A DNA stretch of 64,000 nt, taken from positions 62,001-126,000 of the forward strand of contig NZ_LLZN01000039.1 in the NCBI RefSeq assembly GCF_001509795.1. Direction: 5' to 3'. The position numbers and the translations under genes are program-made. Position 1 is the stretch's first letter; each line of letters starts with the position of its first letter. The stretch is from Streptomyces sp. NRRL WC-3605 (lineage in GTDB: Bacteria; Actinomycetota; Actinomycetes; Streptomycetales; Streptomycetaceae). Below, in pieces: positions 61,744 to 64,000 of this stretch. The notes under the pieces are model-generated. The model was not told where the DNA came from and did no database searches. It saw nothing but the letters and a program-made list of their open reading frames with translations.

Positions 61744-63177
61744 ATGTCAGACAGCTCCTCCCTGCCGCCGGTACGGCTGCACCCCGAAGCGGAGCTGGCG
61801 CGGGACGCGCTGTCCACGCCGTTGCTCTCCCGCGCCGCCCGGCTGGCCCGCTGGGCCGGTCCCGACACCCGGGTCGACGCGGGCGGCGGACTCGTCGACG
61901 AGCAACTGCCCGCCGCCGCCGAGGTGCTCGGCCTCGACGGCGACGACGCCGCCGCCCACGCCGGCGAGGCGTGGCGGGTGGCCGTCGACACCGGACTGGT
62001 CGACGTCGTCGACGAGGAGGCCGGCACGGTCGCCGCAGGCGCCGACCTGGACCTGCTGACCAGCGGCACCCCGCAGGACGTCCTCGCGGTGTGGCTCGCC
62101 GCGCTGGAGACGGCGCTCGCCGACGCGAGCGTGCCCGACCTGGACGACCTGGTCGACGCCATGGACTCCGGCGGGGAGATCGACCTGTCCTCCCTCGACT
62201 GGGACCCGGAGGCCGAGGCGGAGTTCCTCGACGGCGTCCTCGGCAACCTGTACCTGCTCACCGCCAGCGAGGACGCACCCCAGGGCGGACCCGTGCCGCT
62301 GCCGGCCCTCGCCGCGTCCGTGATCGTCCCCGGCGACATGAGCGAACCCACCAACGACGTGCTGGAGCAGGTGTCCGACGCGATGATGCGCCTGGACGAC
62401 CAGTTCCGGCTGCTGGAGCCGGCCGGACTCGTCGCGTACCAGCCGGTCGACGAGGCGCTGCTCGCGGACGCCGACGGCGCCGAGGAGCCGGCCGCCGGCA
62501 TCGACGACACCGACGTCTCGCGCTACGGCATGGTCCGGCTCACCCCGCTCGGGCTGTACGGGCTGCGCGCGCGGTTCCTGGAGGCCGGCTTCGACGCGCC
62601 CGCGGTCGGGGACCTCGCCGGCAAGGGCGCCGAGGCGCTCCTCGACGGCACCGCCGGCTACCCGCAGACCGCCGCGCGCGCCGAGACCGAGCAGTGGCTG
62701 GCCCGCCGTGAAGCGCTGCCCGCGGCCCGGGAGTTGCTGTCCGCCGCCAAGGGCCTCGACGAGGGGGCGCCGCTGCGCCGGCTGCGCTGCCAGCAGGCGC
62801 TGTCGCTGGTCGGCGCCGAGGCGGAGCCCGCGCTGCGGGAGGTCCTCGACGACGCGGAACTGGGCGGGCTGGCCCGGGTGTGGCTGAGCGAGGCGGGCTT
62901 CACCGATGTCCCGCCGCCCACCCAGGAGCTGGTGTTCTGGCTGACCATCGACACCCTCGCCGCCCAGCTGGCGGCCGAGGGGAACTCGGAGGAGCTGCGG
63001 GCGCTGGTGGAGGGCCTGGCAGCCCAGCACAGCGGGTTCTTCGACAAGGTGTGGCGGGTCGGGCACCCGGCCACGGCGGACGTGCTGGAGGCCATGGGCC
63101 GGCTGCACCCGGACAAGAAGGTGGCGAAGGAGGCCCGTAAGGCGGCCTTCAAGGCGCGCTCCCAGCACGGCGGCTGA
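61744..63177 (+). CDS. Conserved hypothetical protein, 477 aa, acidic, HEAT-like C-terminus
   Basis: A soluble acidic protein typical of Streptomyces. The N-terminal two thirds contain Asp/Glu/Ala-rich helices (VDEQLPAAAEVLGLDGDDAAAHAGEAWRVAVDTGLV; DLDDLVDAMDSGGEIDLSSLDWDPEAEAEFL), a wing-like SRYGMVRLTPLGLYGLRA and a C-terminal alpha-solenoid (LRRLRCQQALSLVGAEAEPALREVLDDAELGGLARVWLSEAGF; ELRALVEGLAAQHSGFFDKVWRVGHPATADVLEAMGRLHPDKKVAKEARKAAFKAR) resembling HEAT repeats. I know no function. Next gene to the right is TROVE-like. Confidence 0.8.
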   Translation: MSDSSSLPPVRLHPEAELARDALSTPLLSRAARLARWAGPDTRVDAGGGLVDEQLPAAAEVLGLDGDDAAAHAGEAWRVAVDTGLVDVVDEEAGTVAAGADLDLLTSGTPQDVLAVWLAALETALADASVPDLDDLVDAMDSGGEIDLSSLDWDPEAEAEFLDGVLGNLYLLTASEDAPQGGPVPLPALAASVIVPGDMSEPTNDVLEQVSDAMMRLDDQFRLLEPAGLVAYQPVDEALLADADGAEEPAAGIDDTDVSRYGMVRLTPLGLYGLRARFLEAGFDAPAVGDLAGKGAEALLDGTAGYPQTAARAETEQWLARREALPAARELLSAAKGLDEGAPLRRLRCQQALSLVGAEAEPALREVLDDAELGGLARVWLSEAGFTDVPPPTQELVFWLTIDTLAAQLAAEGNSEELRALVEGLAAQHSGFFDKVWRVGHPATADVLEAMGRLHPDKKVAKEARKAAFKARSQHGG

Positions 63178-63259: not shown

Positions 63260-63301
63260 CCCCCGGAATTAATTCGCTCGCCCCTTCCCGCGATCACTCC
63301 C

Positions 63302-63307
63302 TACAGT
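63302..63307 (+). promoter_or_regulatory. -10 box of the Y-RNA-like cluster
   Basis: TACAGT, TAnnnT type, places transcription start near 63314, exactly at the first base of the closing stem of the first RNA. No consensus -35 is seen. Confidence 0.45.
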
Positions 63308-63314
63308 GATGAAC

Positions 63315-63450
63315 GTCCAGGTGCGAAGGCAGGACCTACTTCCACTGATAATGGGGCGGTCGCGGGTTCGAGTCCCGCCGCCGGCACACGTGCCGGTGTA
63401 GCTCAGGGGTGAGAGCACCTTGTCGGTTCCGCCGACTTCGATCTCTGGAC
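63315..63450 (+). ncRNA. Y-RNA-like element A (YrlA type) with permuted tRNA-like domain
   Basis: Closing stem GTCCAG (63315-63320) / CTGGAC (63445-63450), internal loop GTG/ATCT, then CGAAG (63324-63328) / CTTCG (63436-63440). GTGCGAAGGC resembles the Ro60-binding strand of Y RNAs (CGAAGGYAG). The other end is a circularly permuted tRNA: T arm GCGGG-TTCGAGT-CCCGC (63362-63378), 3' acceptor CGCCGGC (63379-63385), cap loop ACACGT, 5' acceptor GCCGGTG (63392-63398) pairing 7/7 with one T-G, TA linker, D arm GCTC-AGGGGTGA-GAGC (63401-63416). There is no anticodon arm: the Y stem takes its place. This matches what is known of YrlA RNAs bound by Rsr. Confidence 0.8.
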
Positions 63451-63466
63451 ACCACAACTTCACGCA

Positions 63467-63540
63467 CCTCCCGGTGCGCGGGCCACGGTTACTTCTTCTC
63501 TCCAAAGAATCCCGACCGTGGCCGACTTGATCTCGGGAGG
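63467..63540 (+). ncRNA. Y-RNA-like element B, compact hairpin without tRNA module
   Basis: Closing stem CCTCCCG (63467-63473) / CGGGAGG (63534-63540); internal loop with GTGCGCG on the 5' side and GACTTGATCT on the 3' side; upper stem GGCCACGGT (63481-63489) / ACCGTGGCC (63515-63523), then an inner TTCTT / AAGAA. The 5' motif GTGCGCGGGC and 3' motif GCCGACTTGATCT are nearly the same as in element A (GTGCGAAGGC, GCCGACTTCGATCT), so it looks like a second Rsr-binding RNA, about 74 nt, closer in form to animal Y RNAs. Confidence 0.65.
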
Positions 63541-63553
63541 CGCAGCTCATGGT

Positions 63554-63708
63554 GGGTGCCCGGTGCGCAGGCGGCGGATACTTCGGGGAACTGGTGGGGG
63601 ACATCCCCCGTGCGGGTTCGAATCCCGTCATCGGCTCAGGGCCGGTGTGGCGGAACGGAAGACGCGCCAGTTGATAAGGACCGCAGACGATTCATTCCTC
63701 GGGCACCC
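63554..63708 (+). ncRNA. Y-RNA-like element C with permuted, leucine-type tRNA-like domain
   Basis: Closing stem GGGTGCCCG (63554-63562) / CGGGCACCC (63700-63708), 9 bp perfect, followed by GTGCGCAGGC (63563-63572). Inside are: AACTGG (63589-63594) / CCAGTT (63667-63672) as the anticodon-stem remnant, a class II variable arm GGGGG-ACAT-CCCCC (63596-63609), T arm GCGGG-TTCGAAT-CCCGT (63612-63628), 3' acceptor CATCGGC (63629-63635), cap TCAGG, 5' acceptor GCCGGTG (63641-63647), TG linker, D arm GCG...CGC (63650-63665) with GG in the loop. Apart from the strand order it reads like a bacterial tRNA-Leu. 13 nt separate it from element B. Confidence 0.75.
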
Positions 63709-63720
63709 TCCTTCTGTCGC

Positions 63721-63738
63721 GCCTTCCTGAATGAAGGC
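63721..63738 (+). other. Hairpin between element C and the TROVE-like gene
   Basis: GCCTTC / GAAGGC, 6 bp, loop CTGAAT, preceded by the pyrimidine-rich CTCCTTCTGTC. Could mark the 3' end of the RNA cluster (processing or partial termination) before the ribosome binding site AGAGGGGG. Confidence 0.45.
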
Positions 63739-63764
63739 AGCAGAGAAAGAGGGGGAATTCCATC

Positions 63765-64000
63765 ATGGCGCGATTCAACACCCGTGCGGCGAAGGCGCGG
63801 CCCACCTCACGGGTGACGTCGACCGGCCGCGTGCTGCGCACCTATGAGGGCGGCCGCGGACACGAGCGTGACGCGCGCTCCGAGCTGTTCCTGCTCGCGG
63901 TCGGCAACTTCGTCTCGCAGCGCACCTTCTACGAGAGCGGCGCCGAGCGCGACGACCGGTTCGCCACGCTCGTACGCGAGCTCGCCGTCAGCGACCCGGA
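63765..64000 (+). CDS. rsr: TROVE-domain protein (Ro60/Rsr-like), partial at its 3' end
   Basis: Only 78 codons are inside the window; the frame runs off the right edge. MARFNTRAAK...VTSTGRVLRTYEGGRGHERDARSELFLLAVGNFVSQRTFYESGAERDDRFATLVRELAVSDP is the N-terminus I associate with TROVE/Ro60 orthologues: the GRGHERDARSELFLLAVGNFVSQRTFYE segment is the first helix of the HEAT-ring, and YE/ERDDRF are conserved. Ro60/Rsr is a ring protein that binds Y RNAs and misfolded RNAs and works with PNPase in RNA decay. AGAGGGGG precedes the ATG. The three Y-RNA-like elements immediately upstream support this call. The rest of the gene must be read to confirm it. Confidence 0.85.
   Translation, partial: MARFNTRAAKARPTSRVTSTGRVLRTYEGGRGHERDARSELFLLAVGNFVSQRTFYESGAERDDRFATLVRELAVSDP

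What the first reader, a model, noticed from the sequence alone, without database searches (positions are those of the whole stretch)
63300..64000. Tandem Y-RNA-like cluster in the leader of a Ro60/Rsr-type gene
Seen: three structured elements (63315-63450, 63467-63540, 63554-63708), each closed by a perfect 6-9 bp stem, each with GTGCG[AC][AG]GGC directly after it, spaced by only 13-16 nt, ending 57 nt before a TROVE-like start codon. Known: bacterial Rsr binds Y RNAs, some (YrlA) with tRNA-like modules, and the RNA genes often lie beside rsr; Rsr-Y RNA-PNPase forms an RNA-degrading machine in Deinococcus. Inference: a single transcript carries three Rsr ligands plus the rsr mRNA, so Rsr could bind its own leader and regulate or process it. 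A tandem triplet fused to the message is not something I know to be described.
Basis: partly seen in the sequence, partly recalled or inferred. Interest (0 to 1): 0.93.

Follow-up and report, generated by a model that had tools for sequence, protein, structure and literature searches.

The report
Tandem Y RNAs carrying tRNA anticodons
Directly in front of a Streptomyces gene for a Ro60-like protein lie three Y-RNA-like elements in a row, the first of which contains a complete, circularly permuted tRNA sequence with an anticodon arm and would likely act as a decoy or docking site for enzymes that recognise tRNAs.

Summary
In detail: three elements (63315-63450, 63467-63540, 63554-63708), each with a perfect 6/7/9-bp closing stem and GTGCG[AC][AG]GGC, precede a complete 527-aa TROVE (Ro60/Rsr) gene. 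E1 and E3 covary in orthologous loci; E2 is conserved but hardly covaries. Y RNA and rsr co-occur (72 of 73 genomes with a strong match have rsr).

E1 is no plain YrlA RNA (32 bits against Rfam's cut-off of 69): its module is a whole permuted tRNA (anticodon arm, variable loop, T-arm, 7-bp acceptor, loop, D-arm) set into the Y stem. Un-permuted, 41 of 41 parsed copies are read as tRNAs by ARAGORN. Of 109 distinct Streptomyces copies with the arm, 108 carry a triplet found among this genome's anticodons (mostly CAU, GAU, CUU); on the rsr tree position 34 changed at least 14 times, between C and G only. E3 exists in a class I and a tRNA-Leu-like form with a covarying long variable arm. Arrays of 2-4 elements precede rsr in other actinobacteria, and phages have them too; some are annotated as tRNA genes.

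Best reading: co-transcribed Rsr ligands whose tRNA modules bait anticodon-reading enzymes. Transcription, Rsr binding and decoy action are untested; key Y RNA papers were not readable.

The parts
63269..63314 (+). promoter-like block: TTAATTCGCTCG (63269-63280) and TACAGT (63302-63307), 7 nt before E1
   Evidence: both halves found before the first element in 78 of 80 readable loci (79 named plus the window; L154 is cut), hexamer in 80 of 80; no sigma-70 consensus match, so promoter function is inferred
63315..63450 (+). E1: Y RNA with a complete circularly permuted tRNA module
   Evidence: R1 model 157.5 bits (the model was trained on it too); covariation; RNAalifold finds the same stems unprompted; YrlA 32.1 bits
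63340..63356 (+). E1 anticodon arm TTCCA-CTGATAA-TGGGG, anticodon GAU at 63347-63349
   Evidence: same 7-nt loop as tRNA-Ile(GAU) of this genome
63357..63416 (+). E1 variable loop CGGTC, T-arm (63362-63378), acceptor 3' strand (63379-63385), 6-nt joining loop, acceptor 5' strand (63392-63398), UA, D-arm (63401-63416)
   Evidence: segmentation; pairs
63467..63540 (+). E2: simple Y RNA without tRNA module
   Evidence: 55 copies aligned; fold z -4.57; little covariation
63554..63708 (+). E3: Y RNA with opened, permuted tRNA-Leu-like module
   Evidence: R1 42.7 bits at 63557-63705
63595..63611 (+). E3 long variable arm T-GGGGG-ACAT-CCCCC-GT (class II tRNA feature)
   Evidence: covaries across 49 distinct windows; same layout as this genome's tRNA-Leu(CAG) and (GAG)
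63650..63665 (+). E3 D-arm GCG-GAACGGAAGA-CGC, tRNA-Leu type
63708..63757 (+). leader hairpins before rsr: GCCTTC/GAAGGC (63721-63738) and a possible CTCCTTCT/AGAGGGGG pairing that covers the ribosome-binding GGGGG
   Evidence: in the 80 named loci plus the window a stem over the GGGGG scores 7 or more in 88% against 28% of shuffled controls; function inferred
63765..64000 (+). 5' part of rsr (TROVE/Ro60 relative, 527 aa, runs on outside the window)

Best explanation
Three Y-RNA-like elements stand head to tail directly before an rsr (Ro60) gene and are predicted to be made as one transcript and cut into three Rsr-binding RNAs, of which E1 carries a complete permuted tRNA sequence with an anticodon arm and would likely act as bait for enzymes that read anticodons, such as tRNA-cleaving nucleases. 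Shown: order, pairing, covariation of E1 and E3, tRNA anatomy, conservation, genome co-occurrence of Y RNA and rsr. Inferred: the common closing stem plus internal loop is the Rsr-binding part; E2 is a plain gate or tether; the modules of E1 and E3 present a tRNA surface on Rsr with the acceptor end sealed by a loop, so that enzymes can bind but not charge it. E1 offers anticodons that end in U36 (Met, Ile, Lys, Asn, Arg, Ser, Thr boxes), E3 a tRNA body that in this species looks like tRNA-Leu, and other copies offer Asp, Glu, Cys, Gly, Pro or Arg triplets. The array would thus guard real tRNAs or deliver cut tRNAs to Rsr-linked decay or repair.
For: Anatomy: E1 pairs covary and RNAalifold, given no structure, returns the same stems including the anticodon arm of 5 bp and 7 nt. 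Un-permuted E1 is read as a tRNA in 41 of 41 parsed copies; the 42nd, L067, has lost the arm. Anticodon kept as an anticodon: of 111 distinct Streptomyces E1-type copies (picked by outer stem and TAGCTCA D-arm, loop not constrained) 109 have the arm; U36 in 108, C32 and U33 in 107, A38 in 109, A34 in none; 108 triplets are among the 40 anticodons read from this genome and 90 whole loops equal a real tRNA loop. On the rsr tree of 81 loci the triplet changed at least 17 times, position 34 at least 14 times with C and G only, while 36 and 38 changed 0 times in 55 copies; 32-33 also 0 times, but the pattern of that script asked for CT there (the named copies it found are the same 54 that R1 finds). 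E3: the Leu-type D-arm goes with a long variable arm in 11 of 13 copies, the other D-arm with 5 nt in 39 of 43 (1 of 57 unparsed). Other copies with a D-arm like this genome's tRNA-Glu(UUC) have that tRNA's 4-nt variable loop in 15 of 15. Partnership: 72 of 73 genomes with a strong full-length match have rsr against 11 of 74 others. Conflict setting: the authors of PMC7790460 name competitive inhibition of an anticodon nuclease by YrlA as a possibility (passage); in 4 of 6 opened phage records rsr lies within a cluster of annotated tRNA genes.
Against: No transcript, Rsr-binding or nuclease data were available. Change between C and G only at position 34 may reflect a structural need rather than a reader. 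Position 37 is not A in 17 of 109 copies, unlike this genome's tRNAs of these boxes. In the 15 copies with a Glu-type D-arm the triplets vary (GUC 7, GCA 3, CUC, UUC, UCC, CGG, GCG one each), so body and anticodon are not those of one tRNA. 26 of 80 named loci lack E1, so it is dispensable. By thermodynamics alone the full cloverleaf of the window's E1 lies 11.6 kcal/mol above its minimum-energy fold, and the anticodon arm has a mean pairing probability of 0.24 over 42 copies, though 0.54-0.87 per pair in the window. The genome's RtcB gene is not beside rsr. In Salmonella no YrlA fragments were seen after tRNA cleavage, though that RNA is described with D, T and acceptor arms only.
Confidence: 0.38

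Rival explanations
1. The tRNA modules are only docking parts: as in Deinococcus, Y RNA tethers PNPase or another tRNA-binding enzyme to Rsr, and the anticodon arm is carried along without being read.
For: Reported for Deinococcus/YrlA (passages in PMC7790460 and PMC8394870); T-loop (except one site), D-stem and acceptor 5' strand of E1 did not change in 55 copies; E3 has no anticodon loop; in other copies body type and triplet do not match one tRNA.
Against: A tether needs no anticodon, yet 108 of 109 E1 triplets are real anticodons of the genome and A34 never occurs; the triplet changed at least 17 times within that set but for one CAA copy's row.
Confidence: 0.32
2. Relic of origin: the module came from the junction of two tandem tRNA genes (3' part of one, spacer, 5' part of the next), and the anticodon loops are inherited with weak constraint.
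For: R1 matches to ordinary genes that were inspected (L245, L246, L247) are such junctions, e.g. two tRNA-Asn genes 4 nt apart in this genome; one Y RNA sits inside a 16-tRNA cluster next to rsr (L234); 4 of 6 opened phage records have rsr in tRNA clusters.
Against: At least 17 triplet changes on the rsr tree while 36 and 38 stay fixed is more than inheritance; origin and present function are separate questions.
Confidence: 0.15
3. Leader control: Rsr binds the uncut leader and a hairpin over the ribosome-binding GGGGG switches rsr translation.
For: One promoter-like block before the array, no terminator-like site on the + strand, a stem over the GGGGG in 88% of 81 loci against 28% of controls.
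Against: 14 stand-alone loci without rsr in the fetched stretch suggest that such RNAs work away from the message; the window's hairpin differs from that of its relatives.
Confidence: 0.1
4. E1 is a permuted tRNA gene that matures into a working tRNA, as permuted tRNA genes of some algae and archaea do (recalled).
For: ARAGORN accepts the un-permuted sequence.
Against: The joining loop is 3-8 nt; the Y stem is conserved and co-occurs with rsr; 108 of 109 triplets already have normal genes in this genome. Splicing signals were not searched for.
Confidence: 0.03

Closest known systems
YrlA (Rfam RF02553), Y RNA-like A of Salmonella and others
   Same: lower stem, internal loop, second stem, T-arm, sealed acceptor and D-arm in permuted order, next to rsr
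   Different: 32.1 bits against a cut-off of 69 in the window, 0 YrlA matches in 20 loci at gathering; YrlA is described with D, T and acceptor arms (PMC8394870 passage); E1 adds an anticodon arm, E3 a class II variable arm
Deinococcus Rsr-Y RNA-PNPase machine
   Same: Ro60 relative with a Y RNA partner
   Different: PNPase link not tested here; no anticodon part named in the passages read
rsr-yrlBA-rtcBA operon of Salmonella
   Same: Y RNAs in one operon with rsr
   Different: here three Y RNAs before rsr; RtcB elsewhere in the genome
tmRNA and permuted tRNA genes
   Same: tRNA mimicry, rearranged order
   Different: no tag frame, sealed acceptor end, Y stem (recalled comparison)

Membership tests
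TROVE / Ro60 (Rsr) | TROVE domain over Pfam cut-off | tested here: met
   50.3 bits, cut-off 23
bacterial Y RNA | encoded beside rsr and found with it across genomes | tested here: met
   72 of 73 genomes with a strong match have rsr
bacterial Y RNA | conserved two-part stem with internal loop at the RNA ends | tested here: met
   covariation for E1 and E3; E2 conserved, covariation not above shuffles
bacterial Y RNA | binds Rsr | not testable with these tools
   needs pull-down
YrlA (RF02553) | Rfam gathering score | tested here: not met
   32.1 against 69; none at gathering in 20 loci
YrlA (RF02553) | permuted T-arm, acceptor, D-arm | tested here: met
   E1 and E3; not E2
YrlA (RF02553) | tRNA-like domain of D, T and acceptor arms, no anticodon arm | tested here: not met
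   E1 has the arm; E3 fits
tRNA gene | recognised in native order with free ends | tested here: not met
   ARAGORN 0 genes in the window; acceptor ends joined by a loop

The most novel reading that the evidence does not exclude
Actinobacteria and their phages carry a modular anticodon-decoy system: arrays of Y RNAs built from tandem tRNA genes, each displaying a tRNA body and often a real anticodon on a Ro60 ring, with the anticodon toggling between used triplets over evolution to match tRNA-cleaving attackers.
Probability: 0.25. Interest if true: 0.92.

Novelty: new variant of a known kind. Interest (0 to 1): 0.72.

Why it matters
What the tRNA-like part of bacterial Y RNAs is for is, as far as could be read, open. 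A form with a full anticodon arm, whose triplets stay within the real anticodon set while switching among them, makes a direct test possible: change three nucleotides and ask which enzyme loses interest. It also explains false tRNA annotations in actinobacteria and phages, and gives a covariance model for RNAs that Rfam's YrlA model misses at its cut-off.

Tried and rejected
Rejected: plain YrlA membership (cut-off not met); real tRNA genes in the window; a protein partner common to the stand-alone copies (Pfam of 20 neighbouring ORFs from 12 of the 14 loci gave no shared family beyond syntenic pairs); sigma-70 promoter and + strand terminator matches. Single-sequence folding was not decisive. 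I considered that U36-A37 marks t6A substrates (recalled), but A37 is lost in 17 of 109 copies. A pairing of the strand after the D-arm of E1 with TGGGG, as in E3, was weighed; the stem variants TTCGA/TCGGG (7) and TTCCG/CGGGG (3 of 109) favour the hairpin.

Not readable in the library: Chen 2014, Wang 2018, Sim and Wolin 2018, Sim 2020, so I cannot say that anticodon arms are absent from print; the listings (of which only the top rows were shown) held no paper on Streptomyces Y RNAs that I recognised. From recall only: Chen 2014 reports Y RNAs near rsr in more than 250 bacteria and phages, at least one per species with a tRNA-like domain.

Full report
Observation. They are closed by perfect 6-, 7- and 9-bp stems, each followed by GTGCG[AC][AG]GGC. 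The gene after them, incomplete in the window, was read on in the assembly: 527 aa, Pfam TROVE. A convergent TerD-domain gene follows it.

Orthologues. rsr relatives exist in 82 of 150 sampled Streptomyces genomes. Upstream regions were fetched, and 80 named Streptomyces loci came from a separate collection (the best 80 of 335; some may be the same strains as the unnamed ones). By a model built from 42 E1 copies (R1), 54 of the 80 named loci have E1 and 26 do not; on the rsr tree presence changed at least 14 times. A promoter-like block goes with the first element: its TANN[CG]T hexamer ends 7 nt before E1 in 54 of 55 loci and 17-19 nt before E2 in 24 of 25 readable loci without E1 (L154 is cut).

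E1. The structure is: outer stem; internal loop GTGCGAA / GACTTCGATCT; second stem GGCAGGACC/GGTTCCGCC with a usual mismatch at its fourth pair (34 of 42 copies); then a permuted tRNA: anticodon arm, 5-nt variable loop, T-arm, acceptor 3' strand, short loop, acceptor 5' strand, UA, D-arm. The acceptor is 7 bp in all 41 parsed copies. Pair counts: 97.3% of cells paired; 13 pairs with both sides changed (shuffles 2.8, slid versions 0-4). RNAalifold returns these stems without being told. After un-permuting, ARAGORN reads 41 of 41 as tRNAs: CAU 16, GAU 9, CUU 8, GUU 3 and five others once each. In the larger Streptomyces set the arm is present in 109 of 111 distinct copies (two of these in a shifted register), with CAU 50, GAU 26, CUU 19. 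The nine distinct NNU triplets in normal register all lie among the 11 of 16 that this genome uses (chance 0.005 if drawn evenly; relatedness is ignored, and the tRNA list comes from 47 distinct tRNAs read from the fetched part of 68 hits). On the rsr tree the triplet changed at least 17 times, position 34 at least 14 times, C and G only, position 35 six and 37 seven times; 36 and 38 never. Position 34 is not the fastest position: a D-loop site changed 18 times. Positions 44 and 47 of the variable loop use A or T in 31 and 43 of 109 copies; A never occurs at 34, T in five copies.

E2 is a short Y RNA with the same kind of stems and TTACTTC but no tRNA part. It is well conserved; compensatory change is slight and not above shuffles by count.

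E3 keeps the tRNA order but its anticodon stem is open and leads into the Y stem, as in the YrlA model. All five anticodon-stem pairs show two-sided changes, with 81% of cells paired. Copies with a TAGCTCA-type D-arm have a 5-nt variable loop in 39 of 43; copies with a tRNA-Leu-type D-arm have an 11- to 19-nt variable region in 11 of 13 and 6 nt in two. In the larger set 44 of 54 Leu-type copies have 10 nt or more and 10 have 6 nt. Over 49 distinct 17-nt windows, short-armed copies included, the layout T-5bp-4nt-5bp-NT pairs in 76% of cells against 51-62% when slid, with whole stems replaced (GGGGG/CCCCC, CCCTG/CAGGG, GCTTC/GAAGC, CCGTA/TACGG, TCCTG/CAGGA). The genome's tRNA-Leu(CAG) and (GAG) have the same layout and nearly the same D-arm. 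The Leu-type state, called by pattern, changed at least 18 times on the rsr tree.

Wider range. In the 147-genome order sample 73 genomes have a strong full-length match; 72 of them have rsr, while 11 of the other 74 do. The exception, G158, holds an odd element (L103). In a 246-genome class sample 51 genomes match at E 1e-6; some of these match only in model positions 26-107, which in the one inspected (L245) is a pair of tRNA genes. Arrays of four stand before rsr in L228, L229 and L230, of three in L232 (a fourth match is weak), of two in L231, L237, L240 and L244. Fourteen loci hold a match without rsr in the fetched stretch. Ten of these have a D-arm like this genome's tRNA-Glu(UUC). Over all parsed copies with that D-arm the variable loop is 4 nt in 15 of 15, as in that tRNA, but the triplets are GUC 7, GCA 3 and five others. 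GCG, seen in other families, is not among the anticodons read here; the tRNA sets of those families were not read. Neighbours of the stand-alone copies are no common protein.

Phages. 87 phage records encode a TROVE protein. Six were opened. In Streptomyces phages Alone3, BRock and pSt2308 and Arthrobacter phage Atuin the gene lies within a cluster of annotated tRNA genes; in Gordonia phage VanLee and Streptomyces phage Kela one tRNA is annotated in the stretch. Full-length R1 matches of 40-100 bits lie upstream of the gene in Alone3, BRock, pSt2308 and VanLee, and one of 58 bits downstream in Atuin. In VanLee the annotated tRNA-Arg(tct) is the first part of a 99.8-bit match; in Alone3 the annotated tRNA-Ser(gct) lies within a 40-bit match. 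Kela has only weak matches (at most 29.5 bits) and an RNA ligase gene before the Ro-like gene.

Origin. R1 matches to ordinary genes that were inspected are junctions of tandem tRNA genes, as in two tRNA-Asn genes 4 nt apart in this genome. This makes a tandem tRNA pair a natural ancestor of the permuted module. It is an inference.

Mechanism. Shown: arrangement, fold, tRNA parts, co-occurrence. Inferred: co-transcription and cutting, Rsr binding through the common stems, and bait action. The published possibility that YrlA competes for an anticodon nuclease (PMC7790460, passage) concerns an RNA described without an anticodon arm; E1 has one. A tether role is the main rival, and both could be true of different elements.

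Limits. The key Y RNA papers are not held, so novelty is judged against what could be read: passages of PMC7790460, PMC8394870, PMC8628891 and PMC7824862 and search listings. Energy calculations alone do not favour the cloverleaf. All counts of sequences ignore relatedness unless the tree is named.

Noticed in passing
L301 3204-3339 and L299 3270-3413: Public phage records annotate parts of Y-RNA matches as tRNA genes: VanLee tRNA-Arg(tct), Alone3 tRNA-Ser(gct). ARAGORN does the same in L228, L229, L230, L237, L240 and L244, and Rfam's tRNA model in L101 (29.2 bits).
   Followed up: partly
L234 2806-2939: A Y RNA with anticodon hairpin loop CTGCGGA lies inside a 16-tRNA cluster between tRNA-Thr and tRNA-Gly, next to rsr.
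   Followed up: partly
63708-63757 and the 80 named loci: Many relatives have a hairpin CCTCCGAA...TTCGGGGG over the ribosome-binding site of rsr; the window has a different one.
   Followed up: partly
L003 2968-3609 (-); L299 7770-8477: A TerD-family gene lies close to rsr both in this genome and in Streptomyces phage Alone3.
   Followed up: no
L302 2729-5165: Streptomyces phage Kela has an RNA ligase gene directly before its Ro-like gene.
   Followed up: no
E1 joining loops, e.g. L015, L022, L029, L035, L044, L060: The loop that seals the acceptor sometimes begins ACCA, like a discriminator plus CCA end; possible relic or chance.
   Followed up: no
61744-63177: A 477-aa ORF upstream of the array has no Pfam match.
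   Followed up: no
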